Assembly: GCF_011300455.1 (NCBI RefSeq) | Contig: NZ_CP049869.1 | Location: forward strand, 2,507,501-2,571,500 | DNA length: 64,000 nucleotides | Direction: 5' to 3' | From: Sphingomonas piscis | GTDB taxonomy: Bacteria; Pseudomonadota; Alphaproteobacteria; Sphingomonadales; Sphingomonadaceae | In this document: positions 2,678 through 38,838 of the stretch, one piece after another | Position numbering within the stretch: position 1 is the stretch's first letter | Layout: every line of letters begins with the position of its first letter | Position numbers and translations under genes: made by a program | The notes under the pieces: model-generated | What the model was told of the DNA's origin: nothing | Seen by the model: only the letters and a program-made list of their open reading frames with translations | Database searches by the model: none

Positions 2678-3990
2678 TGGCGTACTTCGGTTTCACCTGT
2701 CCGCCGCTTCCCGGACATATCAACCCGATGACCGTGCTTGCGCGGGAGCTCGCAACGCGTGGTCACCGGGTCACCTTTCTCGGCTTTCCCGACATGCGGC
2801 GAAAGCTATCACCGGACCTCGAGTTCAGAAGCTTTGGAGAGAGCGATTGGCCTGACGGCAGCCTGGAGCCATTCCTCAAGCGATTGGGCAAGCTCGGCGG
2901 CCCGCTAAGCCTGCGCCGTCTGATCCTGGACCTTGCGGACTTTGCCGACACAGTGTGTCGCGACCTTCCGGGCGCGCTGGAGGAACTGAAGCCGGATGCG
3001 CTGATCGTCGACCAGGCAGACGCGGCGGGCAGTCTCGTCGCGCGCGCCATTGGGTTGCCTTACGTCAACGTCGCCAATGCTCTCCCGCTCAACATGGAGC
3101 CTGGAGTGCCGCCGCCTGTGTTGGCATGGCCCTACGATCCCACCCCCAAAGGCATCCGTCGCAATCTTGGCGGGTACCGGGTTGCGCGCTTCATCGAGCG
3201 GCCGATCACGAAGGTCATTCGGCGACACGCGGTCCGTCTCGGTCAGCCGGATGTTCGCTTCGCCGAGGACACATTGTCGGAAGTGGCGCAGCTGACCCAA
3301 TGCGTCCGCGGACTCGATTTTCCAAGAGAGCGGCTGCCCGCGAACTTCCATTACGTCGGCCCGCTGCGCGAACGGGATCAGCCGATGGACCTGGGGCTGC
3401 CAAATGACGGGAAGCCGCTGGTCTTCTGCTCTCTCGGTACGCTGCAGGGCTCGCGCCTGTCGATCTTCCGAGCGGTGGCGAAGGCTGTGCAAAGCTTGGA
3501 CCTCCGTCTGCTGATCGCCCATGGTGGAATGCTGAGCGAACGACAGTCGGCAAGCTTGCCGGGCGATCCGATGGTGCGCAGCTTCGTGCCGCAGCGAGCC
3601 GTTCTGGCCAAAAGCGCGCTGGCAATCACTCATTGCGGCTTCAACACAGTGATGGACGCGCTGAGCTTCGGAGTGCCGATGGTCGGCATGCCCCTAGCCT
3701 TTGAGCAGCCGGCGACCGGGGCGCGGCTGGAACGGGCGGGGGTTGGGGAGGTGCTCTACCGCTGGCGGACGCCGGGTCGAATTCGGGACGCCGTTGCGGC
3801 AGCGCTTGCCGATCCTGCCTACCGCGTCAGCGCGGCGGCCCTTCAGGCGGAAATCGCCTTGGCTGGCGGTGTTCGCCGGGCTGCCGACATCATCGAGAGA
3901 GCGACCGGCGCCGCTCCGCCGGAAGGCGCCACCAGGGGACGTGCGGCGCGAGGTGGTGCTCGTGGTGATAGCCGAAGTGAAAGCAGCTGA
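2677..3990 (+). CDS. crtX: Zeaxanthin glucosyltransferase CrtX-like
   Basis: This 437-residue GT1/MGT-type glycosyltransferase starts at the ATG overlapping the crtB stop. The N-terminal PPLPGHINPM segment (acceptor side) and the C-terminal UDP-sugar signature around FVPQRAVLAKSALAITHCGF, then GVPMVGMPLAFEQP, are clear. In carotenoid operons this family glucosylates hydroxylated carotenoids such as zeaxanthin or astaxanthin. The last roughly 30 residues (after ADIIERATG) are Gly/Arg/Ser-rich and unlike the family; this tail is read through the 3' end of convergent crtW, suggesting the native stop was lost. Substrate is inferred from context. Confidence 0.88.
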   Translation: MAYFGFTCPPLPGHINPMTVLARELATRGHRVTFLGFPDMRRKLSPDLEFRSFGESDWPDGSLEPFLKRLGKLGGPLSLRRLILDLADFADTVCRDLPGALEELKPDALIVDQADAAGSLVARAIGLPYVNVANALPLNMEPGVPPPVLAWPYDPTPKGIRRNLGGYRVARFIERPITKVIRRHAVRLGQPDVRFAEDTLSEVAQLTQCVRGLDFPRERLPANFHYVGPLRERDQPMDLGLPNDGKPLVFCSLGTLQGSRLSIFRAVAKAVQSLDLRLLIAHGGMLSERQSASLPGDPMVRSFVPQRAVLAKSALAITHCGFNTVMDALSFGVPMVGMPLAFEQPATGARLERAGVGEVLYRWRTPGRIRDAVAAALADPAYRVSAAALQAEIALAGGVRRAADIIERATGAAPPEGATRGRAARGGARGDSRSESS

Positions 3991-4612
3991 GCAGCGACGC
4001 CAACCAGCCGAAATCATTGGTGCGGGCGTTGTGGCGATCGGCAAATGGATGCGCCTCCTGCCGATGCGGACGATAGGTGCCGAAATAGAAGAGTTGCAGG
4101 GCGGACAATATGGCGGGCAGGGCCCAAAACAGCAGGATGTTGGCGTAGCTTGCACCCAGCAAGAGGTAGGCAATTGTAAGTGCCGTCAGGAAGGCCATTT
4201 GCTGCCACCCGAAATAATGGCGGAAGAAGGTGACGAACCAAGGCCAGAAGCTGGTCGAGTGGTCGACGCTGAAATCCGGATCCCCTGCCGTCCCCGGCTC
4301 CCGATGATGGGACATATGTTCGGCGATCAGGCGGTCGTACCAGAAGCCCGCGTAGAGCAGCAGTGCCATACGTCCGACCCAGCGGTTTAAAGCGGGGCGC
4401 CCCGGCGCAAGCGAGCCATGCATAGCGTCATGCGCGACGATGAACATGCCAACGTTGAGCCAGCAGATCAGCGCGACGATAAGGGGCGCGGCGACGTAAG
4501 TCCCGCGCGTGAGCGGCAGGAAGAATACTGACCAGATATGAAGCGCGAGCCAGCCGCCGATGATCATACCGGCGAGGCTCAGACCCTTTGCAGCCTGTGC
4601 GGAAACGATCAC
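3890..4612 (-). CDS. crtW: Beta-carotene 4-ketolase CrtW
   Basis: This 240-residue membrane di-iron oxygenase adds 4-keto groups to beta-ionone rings. Histidine clusters are visible: HDAMHG, HMSHHREPG and FGYHHEHHLAPH, plus several hydrophobic helices. The GTG start was chosen because it overlaps the crtZ stop (GTGA) and gives the usual CrtW length; a longer open frame upstream is only crtZ in another frame. With crtZ it would turn beta-carotene into astaxanthin-type pigments. Its 3' end overlaps the end of convergent crtX by 101 bases. Confidence 0.95.
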   Translation of the reverse strand: MIVSAQAAKGLSLAGMIIGGWLALHIWSVFFLPLTRGTYVAAPLIVALICWLNVGMFIVAHDAMHGSLAPGRPALNRWVGRMALLLYAGFWYDRLIAEHMSHHREPGTAGDPDFSVDHSTSFWPWFVTFFRHYFGWQQMAFLTALTIAYLLLGASYANILLFWALPAILSALQLFYFGTYRPHRQEAHPFADRHNARTNDFGWLASLLSCFHFGYHHEHHLAPHVPWWRLPAERRRSLSR

Positions 4613-5076
4613 CGTGACCCTTTGAGGCGCGCCAGCAGGCTTGCCACCGGAGGCGCGTAGAGAAAGCCGAAGGAGACACCACCGTCCCGCTCTCGAACCG
4701 AATGGTGAAGCCGATGCGCCTGAACGAGCCTCTTCCCATAAGCTCCCAGCCGCCGCCTGGGGAACGGAATACGCCGGTGAACCATACCGTCGTGGACCAG
4801 GACGTAAAGCAGGCCGTAAACCACGGTCCCGACGCCTGCCCACCACAGTAACGGCCATCTGTTCCCAGCAATGAACAGGCCCACGCTGATCAAGCTGAAG
4901 ATCATCGCATAGAGGTCGTTCCGCTCGAACCACCCAGTCGACGGCTCATGGTGAGAGCGGTGCCATCCCCAGCCCACGCCGTGCATGACGAAGCGGTGGA
5001 TCAGCGTCGCAAACACCTCCATCGCGATCACCGTGGCGATCACAACACCGGCCGCAACAAACGCATCCAAGCCCAT
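4609..5076 (-). CDS. crtZ: Beta-carotene hydroxylase CrtZ
   Basis: This 155-residue fatty-acid-hydroxylase-family membrane protein hydroxylates beta-ionone rings at C3. The histidine motifs are HRFVMHG, WHRSHHEP, HDGMVH and HRLHH, all spaced as in CrtZ. The ATG before GLDAFVAAGVV gives the usual family length; the open frame continues upstream but without similarity. It is the first gene of a two-gene crtZ-crtW unit on the minus strand, coupled by a GTGA overlap, so its promoter should lie in the gap to the right. Confidence 0.95.
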   Translation of the reverse strand: MGLDAFVAAGVVIATVIAMEVFATLIHRFVMHGVGWGWHRSHHEPSTGWFERNDLYAMIFSLISVGLFIAGNRWPLLWWAGVGTVVYGLLYVLVHDGMVHRRIPFPRRRLGAYGKRLVQAHRLHHSVRERDGGVSFGFLYAPPVASLLARLKGSR

Positions 5077-33960: not shown

Positions 33961-34331
33961 GCCAGAGGGCCGGGCGGCCGCGACTCCTGCTTGCAGGGGG
34001 CGAGGAAAGTCCGGGCTCCACGGAACAACGGTGCCGGGTAACGCCCGGCGGGCGGCGCAAGCGGCTCAGGGAAAGTGCCACAGAAAGCATACCGCCCGTC
34101 CTTGGACGGGTAAGGTCGAAAGGGTGCGGCAAGAGCGCACCGCGCGGCTGGCAACAGGCGCGGCACGGTAAACCCCACTGGGTGCAAAACCGAATAGGGG
34201 CGGCAGATGGGCCTGTTCCGGCTCGCCGCCCGGGTTGGTTGCTTGAGGCGTGGGGCGACCCACGCCCTAGAGGAATGGTCGCACAGGCATCGCAAGATGC
34301 TGGACAGAACCCGGCTTATAGGCCCTCTGGC
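33961..34331 (+). ncRNA. rnpB: RNase P RNA (class A)
   Basis: The ends pair through GCCAGAGGG and CCCTCTGGC (P1). The universally conserved GAGGAAAGTCCGGGCTCC (CR-I/P4 5' strand) and ACAGAACCCGGCTTATAG (CR-V/P4 3' strand) are both present in the right order, with a GGGTAAGGTCGAAAGGGTGC segment and CCCCACTGGGTGCAAAACCG between. Length near 371 bases fits alphaproteobacterial class A RNA. It is the catalytic RNA that matures tRNA 5' ends. Exact ends may differ by a few bases. Confidence 0.95.
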
Positions 34332-34376
34332 ATTCTCCCCTCGCAACCGGCGGGGGTCACGACTAGTTAGGCGAAC

Positions 34377-34918
34377 ATGGCTCGGCGGCAGACGCGATCG
34401 AACGACTGGGGATTTCCCCGTTGGCGGCCCTACGGCAGCGGCTCAACGGAGGCTGCGAAGGTGCGGCTGTGCGACCGTGAAGGCTGCGTGGAGGTCGGTG
34501 ACCGGCCCGCCCCAAGGCGCCCAATAGCCCGGAACGCTGGTATTTCTGCGAGGCGCATGCCGCCGAGTATAACAAGGGCTGGGACTATTTCGCAGGGCTC
34601 GACGCCGAGGAAGCGGCGCGGCGCGAGGCGGATGAACAGCGGGGTAACAACGGTTACCGGCAGTCGGCGCAATGGCAGTGGGGCGGCCCGGGCGACGGTA
34701 CACGAAGCCGCGACGAGATGCGGGCGCTTGATGCGCTCGGGCTGGACAGCGATGCCGACATGGCAGCGGTGAAGGCTGCGCACCGCAAGCTCGCCAAGGA
34801 AAACCACCCCGACCTGAAGCCCGGCGATGCGGATGCGGCCAAGCGCTTCCAGCAGGTGCAGGCTGCTTATGACGTGCTGCGCAAGGCGGACGAGCGCCGC
34901 CAGGAGACGAAGGCCTAG
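34377..34918 (+). pseudogene. DnaJ-domain protein, split by a single-base frameshift
   Basis: The first 45 codons (MARRQTRSNDWGFPRW, VRLCDREGCVEVGDRPAP) and the rest (KAPNSPERWYFCEAHAAEYN, WDYFAGLDAEEAARRE, then a J domain with KLAKENHPDLKPGDA) lie in different frames. Adding one C to the run at 34510-34513 joins them into a protein of about 180 residues with a cysteine-containing N-terminal part and a C-terminal J domain bearing HPD. J-domain proteins stimulate Hsp70. Homopolymer position suggests sequence error. Its stop overlaps that of convergent sufE. Confidence 0.82.
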
Positions 34919-35328
34919 GCCGCCAGCCGCTCGGCGGTATCCTTCACCAGCGCGATCATGTTTGGAACGCCCTGCGTCCGGTTGGCGCTGAGCTGCCGCG
35001 ATAGGTCGAATGGGGCGAGCGCGGCGGCGATGTCCATCGCAGCGACCTCGGATGCCGGCCTGTCCTGCACGGCGGCGAGCACCAGCGCGACGATGCCCTT
35101 GGTAATTGCGGCGTTGCTGTCGGCCAGGAAGTGGAGCCGACCGTCTGGCTGCGGCGTCGGATAGACCCAGACCGAAGCGGAACAGCCGCGCACCTTCGTG
35201 GCGTCCGTCTTGATCGCGTCGGGCATAGGCTCCAGCTTTCGGCCCAAGTCGATCAGCAACCGGTAACGATCCTCGCCGTCGAGAAACTCATATTCGTCGA
35301 GGAGGTCTTGAAGTGGCGGCAGTGTCAT
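34915..35328 (-). CDS. sufE: Cysteine desulfuration protein SufE
   Basis: 137 residues. The sulfur-accepting Cys49 sits in VRGCSASVWV, the SufE hallmark, followed by ADSNAAITKGIVALVLA and a C-terminal LSANRTQGVPNMI helix. SufE takes persulfide from SufS and passes it to the SufBCD scaffold. The 3' end overlaps the dnaJ-like gene by four bases within the palindrome CCTAGG, so both stops are read from the same bases. Confidence 0.95.
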   Translation of the reverse strand: MTLPPLQDLLDEYEFLDGEDRYRLLIDLGRKLEPMPDAIKTDATKVRGCSASVWVYPTPQPDGRLHFLADSNAAITKGIVALVLAAVQDRPASEVAAMDIAAALAPFDLSRQLSANRTQGVPNMIALVKDTAERLAA

Positions 35329-35360
35329 TGCAGGCGCCTAGCACCCGTGACTGGCCGCTT

Positions 35361-35633
35361 CTAGCGGTCGCGCAGTTCGTCGATCTGGCGGGACAGGCTG
35401 TTTTCCTTGTCGACCGTGATCCGCTCCAGCACCTTCAGCCGCTCCTTGAGTTCCGCGACCTCCTGCCGGAGGCGAAGCGTTTCCGCACTCTCCTTCCCGG
35501 TGGGTTGCTCAAAAGGGTGGTTGAGGCCGCGCTGGCGCCGTCCACGGCCATGACCGAGTTCCATTTTCTTGATGATGATGGCGGCAAGAAATGACATGCC
35601 GATGATGATGAGGACGAACTCAAAGGGGTTCAT
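35361..35633 (-). CDS. Small membrane-anchored coiled-coil protein of psp operon (PspB-like, third extra)
   Basis: 90 residues: an N-terminal membrane helix (FEFVLIIIGMSFLAAIII), a basic stretch (GRGRRQRG), then a coiled coil ending LKERLKVLERITVDKENSL and IDELRDR. The architecture and the ERI-type motif match PspB and the PspC tail, so I read it as a PspB relative, but no named family is certain. It is the last of six genes in the psp transcript and overlaps its upstream neighbour by four bases. Confidence 0.7.
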   Translation of the reverse strand: MNPFEFVLIIIGMSFLAAIIIKKMELGHGRGRRQRGLNHPFEQPTGKESAETLRLRQEVAELKERLKVLERITVDKENSLSRQIDELRDR

Positions 35634-35917
35634 TGCAATTCATCCTTCGCCTGAAGCCTGGGGCGGTCACGCAAAGCTTCGATCTGGGCGGCGGTCTGTA
35701 CGCCGCTATCCGTGGCGATTTGTTCGAGGACTCTGACGCGACTCTCAAGTCGCTCCACTTGCGCGGCATATTGCGCGGCTTTCTCCGCGACCAGCTTGGC
35801 TTCCATCTCCAGCTGCCGTTCCTTCAGCCGGAACCAGGGCTTGATGAACACACCACCGATGATAGCAAGGAGACCGCAGCTGATGCCGAGGATCGGGATA
35901 AGAAGGGGACTGATCAC
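35630..35917 (-). CDS. Small membrane-anchored coiled-coil protein of psp operon (PspB-like, second extra)
   Basis: 95 residues with an N-terminal membrane helix (LLIPILGISCGLLAIIGGVF), a short basic segment (KPWFRLKER) and a long coiled coil that ends RLESRVRVLEQIATD and AQIEALRDRPR. The repeated RVLEQI-type motif links it to its neighbours. Overlaps of four bases on both sides imply stoichiometric translation with them. The function is unknown; a role in the Psp membrane complex is inferred. Confidence 0.7.
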   Translation of the reverse strand: MISPLLIPILGISCGLLAIIGGVFIKPWFRLKERQLEMEAKLVAEKAAQYAAQVERLESRVRVLEQIATDSGVQTAAQIEALRDRPRLQAKDELQ

Positions 35918-36258
35918 GCATTCCCTCCTTTCCCGAGCGCGAGTGCGTCGATCTCCCGGGCCAGCTTCGACGGTTGATCGGTGATGATCCGCTCCACCGT
36001 TTCTAGCCGATCCTTGATGGACCCGAGTTCGGCGCGCAGCTGCGCATTCTCGTTCGTCAGCAGCTTGATCCGCTCGATCGACTCCTGATCCGACTTGGGA
36101 TGGATCGGAAGGCCCCAGCTATTCTGCAGCGGATAGCCGTTCTTGATCTTGAGCCAGGTGGACAGCAGCGAGCCGCCGACGCTGACCGCCACGATCACGA
36201 CAATGAAGGGAAGCAGTCCCATCAGCAATTGGACAAGCTTCATGACATCCGGGTTCAT
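35914..36258 (-). CDS. Small membrane-anchored coiled-coil protein of psp operon (PspB-like, first extra)
   Basis: 114 residues with a membrane helix (LLMGLLPFIVVIVAVSVGGS), a middle loop (NGYPLQNSWGLPIHP) and a coiled coil with KDRLETVERIITDQPSKLA and REIDAL at its end. The RLETVERIITD segment closely matches those of PspB, PspC and the two following proteins. It lies 19 bases after pspC. Assigned to the Psp system by context and motif; no named family is certain. Confidence 0.7.
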   Translation of the reverse strand: MNPDVMKLVQLLMGLLPFIVVIVAVSVGGSLLSTWLKIKNGYPLQNSWGLPIHPKSDQESIERIKLLTNENAQLRAELGSIKDRLETVERIITDQPSKLAREIDALALGKGGNA

Positions 36259-36277
36259 GCCTTGAGTCCCCTTGTTT

Positions 36278-36691
36278 TTAGCGGAGCTGCTCGATTTCGC
36301 GGGCGAGCGACCGGTTCTCGGTGGTTACATAGCTTTCGACGTCGGCGAGCCGCCGGTCGATTTCGCGCAAACGCGAGCGAATGTCGCGAGCCGTGCGGGA
36401 CGGGGATTGGCGAACGCTTTGCCAGAATTGGCGTTCCTCGGGCGCTGCATAGTCGAACTCCGCCGGCTTACGCGGCATGATCAGACCCGCGACGAAGTAG
36501 AAGGGGATGGTGCCGCCGCCAGTGAGGAAGTGCGCGGCAACCATGCAGACCCGGACCAAGGTCACGTCGAACCCTGCGTAGTCGGCAATCCCTGCGCAAA
36601 CGCCCATCACCTTGCCGTTGGCTTTGTCACGGTAAAGTCGGGTGCGGCTCGGCGGTTGAAGGTCGGGCCGTTCGAAAATGTCGTTGGCCAT
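36278..36691 (-). CDS. pspC: Phage shock protein C
   Basis: 137 residues. The N-terminal PspC domain is clear: TRLYRDKANGKVMGVCAGIA, DYAGFDVTLVRVCMV and a membrane helix ending FYFVAGLIMPRKP. The cytoplasmic tail ends with EIDRRLADVESYVTTENR and LAREIEQLR, the motif shared with the adjacent small proteins. PspC with PspB senses envelope stress and releases PspA from PspF. Its ATG shares one base with the pspB stop. Confidence 0.93.
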   Translation of the reverse strand: MANDIFERPDLQPPSRTRLYRDKANGKVMGVCAGIADYAGFDVTLVRVCMVAAHFLTGGGTIPFYFVAGLIMPRKPAEFDYAAPEERQFWQSVRQSPSRTARDIRSRLREIDRRLADVESYVTTENRSLAREIEQLR

Positions 36692-36963
36692 TACTCAACG
36701 TCCTTCAGCAGGCGGGTGCTTTCACGACCGGGCAGGCACTGCTGCTTCCAGTCGGGATTTTCGAGCGTCATGATGCGCTCGATGGTGCAGAGGCGATCGT
36801 CAAGCCGGCGTGCCGCTTCGTACAGGTCGTCGAGCAGTTTCTCGTCACCCTGGGTTAGGGTGGCCGCCTGCTTCCACTTGGTAACGTAATGGAAGATTAG
36901 CCACGGCAACCCCAGAAACAGGATTCCGATCGCCATGATCGGGATGATGAATTCGCCTTCCAT
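36691..36963 (-). CDS. pspB: Phage shock protein B
   Basis: 90 residues: an N-terminal membrane helix (IIPIMAIGILFLGLPWLIFH) followed by WKQAATLTQGDEKLLDDLYE, the PspB-family coiled-coil start, and RRLDDRLCTIERIMTLENPD. It starts four bases after the pspA stop. With PspC it forms the membrane arm of the phage-shock response. Length and gene order are standard for PspB. Confidence 0.92.
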   Translation of the reverse strand: MEGEFIIPIMAIGILFLGLPWLIFHYVTKWKQAATLTQGDEKLLDDLYEAARRLDDRLCTIERIMTLENPDWKQQCLPGRESTRLLKDVE

Positions 36964-36967
36964 GTGA

Positions 36968-37636
36968 TTACTTCCCCTTCGCGGCCAGTGCCGCCTTCAA
37001 AGCTTCGAGTTCAGCGTCGACCTTGTCGGACGCTTTCAGCTCCGCGATTTCTTCTTCAAGGCTCTTTGGCCCCGTCATTCCCAGCGCGTCGGCGCGGCCC
37101 TCGGCGAAGTCCGCCCGCCGTTCGAGCAGGTCGAAGCGGCTGAAGGCGTCTTCCGCCCGATTGCCGTTCATCAGCTCGCGCGCCTTGGCGCGAGTGACCG
37201 CGCTCTCGTAGCGGTTGGCGATGCTGTTCTGCCGCGCGCGCGCTTCACGCAGCTTGCCCTGCAGCTTGGCGATATCGGCTTCATAGCCTTTGAGCGTCTC
37301 GTTGAGGCCGCCCATCTCAGCCTTGAGCGCGTCCGCCATGTCAGCGGCCTTCTGGCGCTCGATCAGCGCAGCCTTGGCAAGATCCTCACGGTTCTTCGAT
37401 AATGCGAGCTCGGCCTTTTCGGTCCAGCTTTCCTGCAATTCGTCGAGGCGGCGCTGCTGGCGCTGCATGTCTTTATGATCGGCGATCAACCGAGCGGCGG
37501 AGGCGCGGACCTCAACCAACGTCTCTTCCATCTCCAGGATGATCATGCGGATCATCCGCGACGGATCCTCGGCGCGGTCGAGCATCTCCGTCATGTTCGC
37601 CGCGAAAATGTCCCGTGCTCGGGAAAATACACTCAT
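36968..37636 (-). CDS. pspA: Phage shock protein A
   Basis: 222 residues, nearly all helical, belonging to the PspA/Vipp1 (ESCRT-III-like) family: MSVFSRARDIFAANMTEMLD is the amphipathic N-terminus, then EDPSRMIRMIILEMEETLVE and SRFDLLERRADFAEGRADAL. It binds and stabilises stressed membranes and inhibits PspF. ATG 37636 has GGAG eight bases upstream; the frame extends further but without similarity. A sigma-54 promoter lies about 45 bases upstream. Confidence 0.96.
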   Translation of the reverse strand: MSVFSRARDIFAANMTEMLDRAEDPSRMIRMIILEMEETLVEVRASAARLIADHKDMQRQQRRLDELQESWTEKAELALSKNREDLAKAALIERQKAADMADALKAEMGGLNETLKGYEADIAKLQGKLREARARQNSIANRYESAVTRAKARELMNGNRAEDAFSRFDLLERRADFAEGRADALGMTGPKSLEEEIAELKASDKVDAELEALKAALAAKGK

Positions 37637-37680
37637 TCTCGGCACTCCAAAAACTTCATCAGGCCTGTGCCTAACCTTAA

Positions 37681-37695
37681 GCACGGACCGTGCCA
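37681..37695 (-). promoter_or_regulatory. Sigma-54 promoter for the psp operon
   Basis: On the minus strand TGGCACGGTCCGTGC matches the -24/-12 consensus TGGCACGNNNNTTGC at all but one base, with GG and GC exactly twelve bases apart. It lies 45-59 bases upstream of the pspA ATG and faces it; the enhancer-binding protein PspF is encoded divergently next door. The bases also form an inverted repeat, GCACGG-A-CCGTGC. Confidence 0.82.
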
Positions 37696-37788
37696 GTCTC
37701 ATGAGAGTGGCGGAAATATGAGAAAATGGCTGTTTTCTGCTGTGAAATATCTTGCCAAGTGATGGTGAAGCACGCCAAGTTTCGGTGA

Positions 37789-38838
37789 GTGGAACGCGCC
37801 AACCAATTCGTCGGCCAGAGCCTTGCCTTTCTCGATGCCGTTGAGCGGGCGAGCCGTGCCGCGCAGCTCAACCGGCCCGTGCTGGTGATCGGCGAACGCG
37901 GGACTGGCAAGGAACTCATTGCGGAACGGCTTCACCATCTGTCGTCGCGCTGGTCGGGGCCGCTCGTCACGATGAACTGCGCTGCGCTGCCCGAGAATCT
38001 GATCGAGGCGGAACTGTTCGGTCATGAAGCAGGCAGCTTCACCGGTGCCGGCAAGACCCGCCACGGACGGTTCGAGGAAGCCGATGGCGGAACGCTGTTT
38101 CTGGACGAACTTGCAACCTTGTCGTCGCCCGCGCAGGACCGTTTGTTGAGGGCGGTCGAATATGGCGAGATCACCCGCATCGGCGCATCCAAGCCGGTCA
38201 AGGTCGACGTCAGAATCGTCGCGGCAACCAACGAACATCTGCCCGCCCTGGTCGACCAGGGTCGCTTTCGCGCCGACCTGCTCGACCGCCTGTCGTTCGA
38301 AGTCGTCACGCTGCCACCGCTGCGGGAGCGCAAGGATGACATCCCACTGCTTGCAGAACACTTTGCGCGACGGATGGCGGCAGAGCTGGAGTGGGACAAT
38401 TGGCCCGGGTTCAGCGCCGGGGCAATGGCCGAACTCGAGCACTACGCGTGGCCCGGCAATGTCCGCGAACTCAGAAACGTAGTGGAACGTGCTGTGTACC
38501 GATGGGAAGATCCGGAACGGTCCGTCGACGCCATCCAGTTCGATCCTTTCCAGTCGCCGTGGGCACCGCTCGCGGCTGGCGAAACGATTTCCGTGCCGCA
38601 ATCTGCTGCCGTCAGCGCAGCCCCGTTCGAAGAGGCCGTGGCAGCCGCACCGCAACCGCCCGCCAGCACCAATGATTTCCGCGGCGCCGTTGCGGCTTAT
38701 GAGCGGGCGCTGCTTGAAGACGCTATGGCGCGCAACCGCTTCAACCAGCGTGCGACCGCAAGCGCTCTTGGCCTAAGCTACGACCAGCTTCGCCACGCGC
38801 TCCGCCGGCACAAGCTTCTCGACGGCGAAGCGGCCTGA
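37789..38838 (+). CDS. pspF: Psp operon transcriptional activator PspF (sigma-54 enhancer-binding protein)
   Basis: 349 residues without a receiver or other N-terminal sensory domain, as in PspF. The AAA+ domain has Walker A GERGTGKELIAE, the sigma-54 contact loop LFGHEAGSFTGA, Walker B GTLFLDELATL and an arginine-finger region; the C-terminus ends with a Fis-type helix-turn-helix (NQRATASALGLSYDQLRHAL). It opens the sigma-54 promoter of the divergent psp operon and is held inactive by PspA. GTG 37789 is used as start; no ATG fits nearby. Confidence 0.93.
   Translation: MERANQFVGQSLAFLDAVERASRAAQLNRPVLVIGERGTGKELIAERLHHLSSRWSGPLVTMNCAALPENLIEAELFGHEAGSFTGAGKTRHGRFEEADGGTLFLDELATLSSPAQDRLLRAVEYGEITRIGASKPVKVDVRIVAATNEHLPALVDQGRFRADLLDRLSFEVVTLPPLRERKDDIPLLAEHFARRMAAELEWDNWPGFSAGAMAELEHYAWPGNVRELRNVVERAVYRWEDPERSVDAIQFDPFQSPWAPLAAGETISVPQSAAVSAAPFEEAVAAAPQPPASTNDFRGAVAAYERALLEDAMARNRFNQRATASALGLSYDQLRHALRRHKLLDGEAA

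What the first reader, a model, noticed from the sequence alone, without database searches (positions are those of the whole stretch)
35361..37702. Expanded phage-shock operon: five consecutive membrane proteins share one coiled-coil motif
After pspA come PspB, PspC and three small proteins of 90-114 residues, each with one N-terminal membrane helix. All five end with a related segment: DRLCTIERIMT (PspB), RRLADVESYVT (PspC), DRLETVERIIT, SRVRVLEQIAT and ERLKVLERITV, usually followed 7-10 residues later by an EIxxL-type end. This looks like repeated duplication of a PspB-type interaction helix, and the ATGA overlaps suggest fixed stoichiometry. A mixed PspB-like oligomer sensing envelope stress is a testable idea; standard Psp systems have one PspB.
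Basis: partly seen in the sequence, partly recalled or inferred. Interest (0 to 1): 0.8.

Follow-up and report, generated by a model that had tools for sequence, protein, structure and literature searches.

The report
Psp operon with spare docking helices
Sphingomonad bacteria carry, in their membrane-stress (phage-shock) operon, a variable set of small unannotated membrane proteins that end in the same helix as the known stress proteins PspC and PspB, which suggests that many different membrane anchors plug into one shared repair machine.

Summary
After pspA-pspB-pspC lie three small single-membrane-helix proteins (D, E, F), and the five membrane proteins share one C-terminal segment, complete in PspC, D, E, F and shorter in PspB. 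It is not generic coiled coil: it beats shuffles that keep hydrophobic and charge positions (0 of 2000), and the six best genome-wide matches to a D/E/F profile are E, F, D, PspC, the PspC of a second psp operon, and PspB (the last three are weak). All 163 genomes examined of the family (Sphingomonadaceae) have at least one such protein; complete psp operons of the family hold 1-7. Orphan relatives occur in other Proteobacteria, in 31 of 31 sampled genomes together with PspB. One family member lacks PspB, has a PspC without its C-terminal helix, and keeps the helix only on E- and F-type proteins. Best reading: a portable docking helix, by sequence the part of PspC that binds PspA in Yersinia, mounted on alternative anchors. 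Copy number varies, so 'fixed stoichiometry' is not supported. A 2024 survey already notes PspB duplicates in psp operons, so this is a new variant of a known system. Binding is untested.

The parts
37789..38838 (+). pspF, sigma-54 enhancer-binding activator, divergent from pspA
   Evidence: Sigma54_activat PF00158 E=3.5e-60 plus Fis-type HTH
37680..37695 (-). sigma-54 type -24/-12 promoter-like site TGGCACGGTCCGTGCT, 43 nt before the pspA start codon
   Evidence: only match with at most 1 mismatch in the 64-kb window, in the right place and strand; by number alone not above chance (mean 1.01 in shuffles)
36968..37636 (-). pspA, 222 aa
   Evidence: TIGR02977 257.8 bits, over its cut-off of 242.95, aligned from residue 1
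36691..36963 (-). pspB, 90 aa; shared helix near 36766-36810 (short form, no EIxxL end)
   Evidence: PF06667 84.9 bits, TIGR02976 78.3 bits; sixth match of the D/E/F profile in the genome, E=0.59
36278..36691 (-). pspC, 137 aa; C-terminal helix at about 36281-36406
   Evidence: TIGR02978 127 bits; PspC C-terminal profile E=4.1e-13; predicted helix 97-136
35914..36258 (-). gene D, 114 aa: one membrane helix, conserved GYPLxNSWG linker, C-terminal module at 35938-36033
   Evidence: second-best match in the genome to a PspC C-terminal profile, E=0.011; D family vs PspC family hhalign E=6.7e-8 over 38 columns; predicted helices 3-40 and 57-111
35630..35917 (-). gene E, 95 aa, GTG start: one membrane helix, AEKAAQYA segment, C-terminal module at 35663-35764
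   Evidence: best match to the module profile (E was one of its 17 rows); E family vs PspC family hhalign E=4.1e-6 over 43 columns
35361..35633 (-). gene F, 90 aa: one membrane helix, C-terminal module at 35364-35465
   Evidence: TIGR02978 PspC model aligned over its positions 46-121, E=0.0067, below cut-off; module profile (F was one of its 17 rows)
34915..35328 (-). sufE-family gene after the operon, same strand, 32 nt after F; landmark in relatives
   Evidence: PF02657 E=2.9e-34; 98 non-redundant psp loci with sufE downstream were used as complete

Best explanation
D, E and F are membrane anchors that carry extra copies of the Psp docking helix. SHOWN here: the C-terminal module of D/E/F is related to the C-terminal helix of PspC and, over a shorter stretch, to that of PspB; the rest of each protein (membrane helix, linker) is far less alike between types; the genes sit in a PspF-type psp operon. 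FROM THE LITERATURE: in Yersinia the cytoplasmic C-terminal domain of PspC binds PspA in the on state, which frees PspF; a 2016 title says that PspB and PspC cytoplasmic domains silence the response by interacting. INFERRED: each extra protein offers the same kind of helix to the same partners, PspA and/or the PspB-PspC pair, from a different membrane anchor, so that several envelope inputs, or more docking sites, feed one PspA pool. It would be a modular adaptor set of variable copy number rather than a complex of fixed composition.
For: Pattern-preserving shuffles, 0 of 2000. Own genome: a profile of PspC C-termini only (11 of 12 rows from outside the family) finds PspC (4.1e-13) then D (0.011), next 0.29; the D/E/F profile ranks E, F, D, PspC (0.0083), a hit inside a second PspC (0.031), PspB (0.59). 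Family-level hhalign places the D-PspC and E-PspC matches on the C-terminal modules and beats pattern-preserving column shuffles, 0 of 200 in each of three comparisons, while PspA, a real coiled coil, scores like the shuffles. Within an operon, unlike types (G left out) share 45% identity in the module against 26% before it, module higher in 498 of 539 pairs. 163 of 163 family genomes have at least one copy. Outside the family 31 of 31 genomes with a copy have PspB, against 69 of 376 overall, Fisher p about 2e-26 without correction for ancestry; 17 of 17 genera. G053: no PspB match, PspC of 88 aa without the helix, E and F retained. Second operon pspA2-pspC2-G in the genus: 20 of 20 G genes found directly follow pspC2. 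Module also on a soluble, zinc-ribbon-like protein (L199). Mechanism: PMC5596341 introduction (passage).
Against: No binding was tested; no complex prediction was possible. D, E and F miss every curated cut-off. Against PspB, window E and F taken singly are not significant. Profile E-values to PspC in the own genome are modest (0.008-0.011), and the second PspC and PspB matches (0.031, 0.59) would not stand alone. The best column shuffle came near the observed score (42.6 against 47.3; 30.0 against 34.2). Copies outside the family are not beside psp genes in any of the 14 neighbourhoods read, so they may do something else. The co-occurrence test does not correct for ancestry, and one module-positive genome of the order, G042 (71% complete), has no PspC match. 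The E. coli leucine zipper reported to matter (residues 77-98, PMC3068692 legend) may cover only the first part of the module, and that paper cites a topology with the PspC C-terminus in the periplasm.
Confidence: 0.57

Rival explanations
1. Mixed PspB-like oligomer: the helices bind one another and PspB/PspC, forming a hetero-oligomeric sensor or a tunable silencer of PspC, with no direct contact to PspA.
For: Shared helix and single-helix architecture as in PspB. E-type proteins approach the PspB model over most of its length in two genomes (23.5 and 22.4 bits against a cut-off of 25.6). A 2016 title cited in PMC5596341 says PspB and PspC cytoplasmic domains interact to silence the response. 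PspB self-associates and binds PspC through membrane regions in E. coli (PMC3068692 abstract).
Against: The D/E/F helix matches PspC's over a longer stretch than PspB's, and PspC's reported partner in the on state is PspA. Copy number 1-7 argues against a set stoichiometry. G053 has such proteins with neither PspB nor a PspC helix to pair with.
Confidence: 0.22
2. Effectors rather than regulators: the proteins act like PspG or PspD, stabilising the membrane once induced, and the amphipathic C-terminal helix lies on the membrane surface.
For: Position late in an inducible-type operon; small single-span proteins; PspG is described as a Psp effector in E. coli (PMC3068692).
Against: The sequence relation is to PspB and PspC; no PspG or PspD model is among the hits. 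A lipid-binding helix would not obviously need the strongly conserved R-E-I-T/D-I-L positions.
Confidence: 0.12
3. Convergent short coiled coil: five small membrane proteins with look-alike helices and no common function.
For: The segment is only about 34 residues; single-pair tests of E and F with PspB fail; generic coiled-coil models match D weakly.
Against: Pattern-preserving shuffles, genome-wide ranking, hhalign column shuffles and the PspA control; presence in 163 of 163 family genomes.
Confidence: 0.05

Closest known systems
PspB (PF06667, TIGR02976)
   Same: one N-terminal membrane helix, short cytoplasmic helical part, psp operon; shared helix aligned over 23 columns
   Different: D, E, F fall below both cut-offs; they have the EIxxL end that PspB lacks; several recurring types; up to 7 per operon
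PspC C-terminal domain (TIGR02978, about positions 72-121)
   Same: module including EIxxL; weak matches of PspB (80-117), D (72-121) and F (46-121) to this model; 38-43 columns by hhalign
   Different: D, E, F lack the PspC membrane domain PF04024
[quoted passage not shown]
   Same: same general phenomenon, one clause each; the host of AOL22920.1 was not checked here
   Different: no types, copy numbers or orders in the sections and passages read; 'Sphingomon' occurs 0 times in the main text; supplements not seen
E. coli PspD and PspG
   Same: extra small Psp proteins
   Different: no PspD or PspG model among the hits of D, E, F at E up to 10 in Pfam or NCBIfam (HMMER filters drop most weak hits)

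Membership tests
Proteobacterial Psp system (pspF-pspABC) | PspA, PspB, PspC over curated cut-offs in one operon | tested here: met
Proteobacterial Psp system (pspF-pspABC) | divergent PspF-like activator | tested here: met
Proteobacterial Psp system (pspF-pspABC) | sigma-54 promoter before pspA | tested here: inconclusive
   one-mismatch site in the right place, but the count in the window is not above chance
PspB family | PF06667 at 25.6 bits or TIGR02976 at 51.7 bits for D, E, F | tested here: not met
   best: F 7.8 bits on PF06667, D 9.8 bits on TIGR02976, E none
PspB family | single N-terminal membrane helix then cytoplasmic helix | tested here: met
   hydropathy and charge, single-chain model of D; topology by the positive-inside rule only
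PspB family | binds PspC and is needed for signalling | not testable with these tools
   needs an experiment
PspC family | PspC membrane domain PF04024 in D, E, F | tested here: not met
PspC C-terminal docking helix | sequence relation of the module to PspC's C-terminus beyond coiled-coil pattern | tested here: met
PspC C-terminal docking helix | binds PspA | not testable with these tools
   stated for Yersinia PspC (PMC5596341 introduction, passage), unknown for D/E/F

The most novel reading that the evidence does not exclude
The Psp response of sphingomonads, and in a reduced form of other Proteobacteria, is not a single PspB-PspC sensor but a modular adaptor system: one portable docking helix mounted on interchangeable membrane anchors (single-span proteins, PspC, even a soluble zinc-ribbon-like protein), each reporting a different envelope state to the same PspA. 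In at least one lineage the helix has moved wholly off PspC and PspB onto such adaptors.
Probability: 0.42. Interest if true: 0.76.

Novelty: new variant of a known kind. Interest (0 to 1): 0.6.

Why it matters
How PspB and PspC pass a membrane-stress signal to PspA is, to my knowledge, poorly resolved in structure; no solved structure matched the window's PspB or PspC by sequence at E up to 1. Here the putative docking helix is found apart from the PspC sensor domain many times over, giving a large natural set of helices and anchors with which the docking step can be tested directly. It would also give a testable function to thousands of small, mostly unnamed proteins (5537, 5288 and 2418 hits at E up to 0.001, best 120 of each listed; the three sets are not disjoint).

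Tried and rejected
Generic coiled coil: rejected. Phage origin of D/E/F: PHROGs gave only E=0.022 and 0.076 for D, nothing for E and F at E up to 0.1. Solved structures: none for PspC or PspB; the module profile gave chance-level hits, best 0.19. Internal terminators: two minus-strand terminator-like sites in 34900-37800, one at the start of pspB (36942-36926) and one before pspA (37675-37658), none among D, E, F.

Limits of the counts. A regular expression missed the orphan in L102, and the ORF maps missed the copy in g35, found later by profile. Operon counts use a simple ORF caller with long ORFs trimmed to a later start. 63 of the 98 complete loci are named loci fetched by similarity to D, so the D-rich orders are over-represented; in the 35 others, 5 (all outside the family) have none and 30 have 1-7, and the commonest orders are D-E-F and D2-D-E-F with 3 each. 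Types come from HMMs built on seeds that I chose by pattern; every one of 597 proteins was put in the nearest type, 17 of them ambiguously. The module profile under-counts type G. One search counts copies anywhere in the genome, not only in the operon. In the co-occurrence count one of 32 non-family genomes (G776) was dropped because its hit was PspC itself (L198); of the remaining 31 the ORF was read in 15 and in 16 the hit was told apart from pspB by coordinates only (other contig or more than 90 kb away), with pspC assumed beside pspB. The base rate 69 of 376 includes two weak PspB matches below the cut-off. hhalign E-values are for single comparisons. With gappy columns removed, D against E aligned over 77 columns, not only the module, so D and E may be related over most of their length. 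In some searches PspA was given with a start 9 nt too far downstream; one search uses 37636.

Literature seen: PMC11237479 sections 8 and 17 whole plus passages; passages only of PMC5596341, PMC3068692, PMC3467454, PMC9239133 ('Sphingo' 0 times), PMC9241875 (one sentence that all Qipengyuania strains have psp genes) and PMC5443232 (a table head naming PspC); the rest as search listings. Searches behind 'little in print'; subscription papers, preprints and supplements were not seen. The 2015 and 2016 Flores-Kim and Darwin papers were not read, only their titles in a reference list.
Full report
WHAT IS THERE. The minus strand from 37636 to 35361 holds pspA, pspB, pspC and three small genes, here called D (114 aa), E (95 aa, GTG start) and F (90 aa), followed after 32 nt by a sufE-family gene. 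pspF lies divergently at 37789-38838. The only match within one mismatch to the sigma-54 -24/-12 consensus in the 64-kb window is on the right strand, 43 nt before pspA; the number alone is not above chance. The genes are packed: 4 nt, TAATG, 19 nt, GTGA and ATGA junctions. D, E, F and PspB each have one hydrophobic helix near the N-terminus with positive charge after it, which by the positive-inside rule puts the C-terminal part in the cytoplasm.

IS THE SHARED SEGMENT REAL. Summed local alignment scores of the five cytoplasmic parts (518) were never reached in 2000 shuffles of composition (mean 245, sd 15) nor in 2000 shuffles that keep every hydrophobic, positive, negative and other position (mean 293, sd 22). 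The pairs among D, E, F and the pairs C-D, C-F carry most of the signal; B-E and B-F alone are not significant (539 and 495 of 2000 in the stricter test). A profile of PspC C-termini, eleven of its twelve rows from families outside Sphingomonadaceae and one from a Sphingomonadaceae genome (L002), was run against the six frames of the whole 2.72-Mb genome: PspC came first (4.1e-13), D second (0.011), the third hit was 0.29. A profile of D/E/F-type modules (17 rows, among them the window's own three) returned E, F, D, then PspC (0.0083), then a hit in frame inside the PspC of a second psp operon (0.031), then PspB (0.59); two further hits had E above 1. The six best matches in the genome are therefore all Psp membrane proteins; three of them were in the profile, and the last two would not stand alone.

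At family level, hhalign of the D family (44 rows) and E family (38 rows) against the PspC family (40 rows), given at full length, aligned the C-terminal 38 and 43 columns (E=6.7e-8 and 4.1e-6); D against E gave 6.6e-17 over 43 columns, and 77 columns when gappy columns were removed. Column shuffles that keep the hydrophobic/charge class did not reach these scores (0 of 200 in each of three comparisons; the nearest were 42.6 against 47.3 and 30.0 against 34.2), and the PspA family, a genuine coiled coil, scored in the range of the shuffles. The D/E/F module against PspB's C-terminus aligned over 23 columns (E=1.6e-7), PspC against PspB over 22 (1.5e-4). So the module comes in a long form with an EIxxL end (PspC, D, E, F) and a short form without it (PspB, and type G below). 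AlphaFold models, single chains only, give D a membrane helix 3-40 and a helix 57-111 (mean pLDDT 75, pTM 0.31, weak at the very end) and PspC a C-terminal helix 97-136 (mean pLDDT 83).

DISTRIBUTION. In 246 genomes of the order, 219 have at least one module protein at E<=1e-4 somewhere in the genome; all 163 of the window's own family do, with 1 to 7 copies, against 56 of 83 genomes of other families, 47 of these with one copy and 9 with two. A separate draw over the class found 6 of 289, five of them of the family. Of 98 non-redundant psp loci with sufE downstream, 93 have 1-7 module genes and the 5 with none are outside the family; 63 of the 98 were fetched by similarity to D, and among the other 35 the figures are 30 and 5. 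Five types recur, which I call D2, D, E, F, G; the commonest orders are D2-D-E-F-G (14), D2-D-E-F (11) and D-E-F (10, as in the window), the first two favoured by the way the loci were fetched. Unlike types within one operon (G left out) are 45% identical in the module and 26% before it; the module is the more similar part in 498 of 539 pairs. In Sphingomonas parapaucimobilis the four genes between pspC and the SufE gene are annotated only as hypothetical proteins.

BEYOND THE FAMILY. In 397 genomes drawn from the phylum, 53 have a module protein; 21 of them are the 21 of the family. Of the other 32, one hit was PspC itself and was dropped. All 31 remaining genomes also have PspB by PF06667, whereas 69 of the 376 non-family genomes do (Fisher p about 2e-26; 17 of 17 genera; not corrected for ancestry, which may inflate it greatly). 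In the order scan one non-family genome with a module protein, G042 (71% complete), has no PspC match; the other 55 do, and 11 of the 12 genomes without PspC lack the module too. The 14 orphan neighbourhoods that I read contain no pspA, B, C or F within about 9.5 kb, so the link there is by genome, not by operon. Some orphans come close to the PspB model, for example 40.7 bits against the TIGR02976 cut-off of 51.7.

NATURAL EXPERIMENTS. (i) Genome G053 of the same family (draft, 40 contigs, rated 100% complete) has no PspB match and only a PspC of 88 aa that ends before the C-terminal helix; the operon reads pspA - short pspC - E - F, and the only module copies found by profile at E<=0.01 are E and F. 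(ii) Two of the three loci that I read from family f8 of the order (L005, L070; not L071) have, after a normal pspC, a second PspC domain without the helix followed by an F-like module protein. (iii) One sphingomonad (G030) has the module on a soluble protein with a zinc-ribbon-like N-terminus (L199; nearest Pfam match PF20097, DUF6487, E=1.5e-4, below its cut-off). (iv) The window's own genome has a second psp operon, pspA2 - pspC2 - G, elsewhere; pspA2 is 84% identical to pspA over 206 residues. G is found in 20 of 21 genomes of the genus and directly follows pspC2 in 20 of 20, with pspA2 visible in 15 of 20 of these short loci.

MECHANISM. [quoted passage not shown] a reference title there says that PspB and PspC cytoplasmic domains interact to silence the response (passages). 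In E. coli a putative leucine zipper of PspC (residues 77-98) is needed for PspA interaction (PMC3068692, abstract and legend); it may cover only the first part of the module. The module multiplied in sphingomonads is by sequence the C-terminal part of PspC. The economical inference is that D2/D/E/F present further copies of the docking helix to the same partners, from anchors that differ in membrane helix and linker, and that short-form proteins (PspB, G) may play the silencing role. Steps shown: relation of the modules, operon membership, distribution, loss from PspC and absence of PspB in one lineage. Steps inferred: binding to PspA or PspB/PspC, different inputs, regulatory effect.

NOVELTY. 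[quoted passage not shown] The sections and passages read there, and the passages read in PMC9239133, contain nothing on sphingomonads, on types or on copy number of such genes. Nine searches of open-licence papers listed no dedicated description; two sphingomonad genome papers from those lists mention psp only in passing. I therefore file it as a new variant of a known kind.

Noticed in passing
G000:C1:1983289-1984742 (L205:2790-4243): Second psp operon in the same genome: pspA2 (84% identical to pspA over 206 residues), a divergent pspC2 whose end reads NDELAREIEALRE, and a G-type module protein; G follows pspC2 in 20 of 20 loci from 21 genomes of the genus.
   Followed up: yes
L201 (G053:C1:127500-137000), 3306-4907: psp operon without pspB and with a PspC that lacks the C-terminal helix; two module proteins follow.
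   Followed up: yes
L199 (G030:C6), 4228-4617: Soluble zinc-ribbon-like protein (weak match to DUF6487) that ends in the same module, away from psp.
   Followed up: partly
L138, L151, L155, L159, L161: PspC-domain ORFs of 59-62 aa without any C-terminal helix in loci that also hold a psp operon.
   Followed up: no
L149 (QDFQ01000001.1): Record titled Arthrobacter sp. TPD3018 encodes a close relative of D (50% identity), otherwise seen in sphingomonads; probably mislabelled or contaminated.
   Followed up: no
NZ_CP155749.1 (L204): An 880-kb Sphingomonas parapaucimobilis record called a plasmid holds the psp operon, ftsY and superoxide dismutase genes; it may be a piece of chromosome.
   Followed up: no
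window 33962-34334: RNase P RNA, class A (RF00010, 290.9 bits), plus strand.
   Followed up: no
L205:2693-2830: Small open frame with a signal-peptide-like start just before pspA2 (read by eye); a short hypothetical gene also precedes pspA in L204.
   Followed up: no
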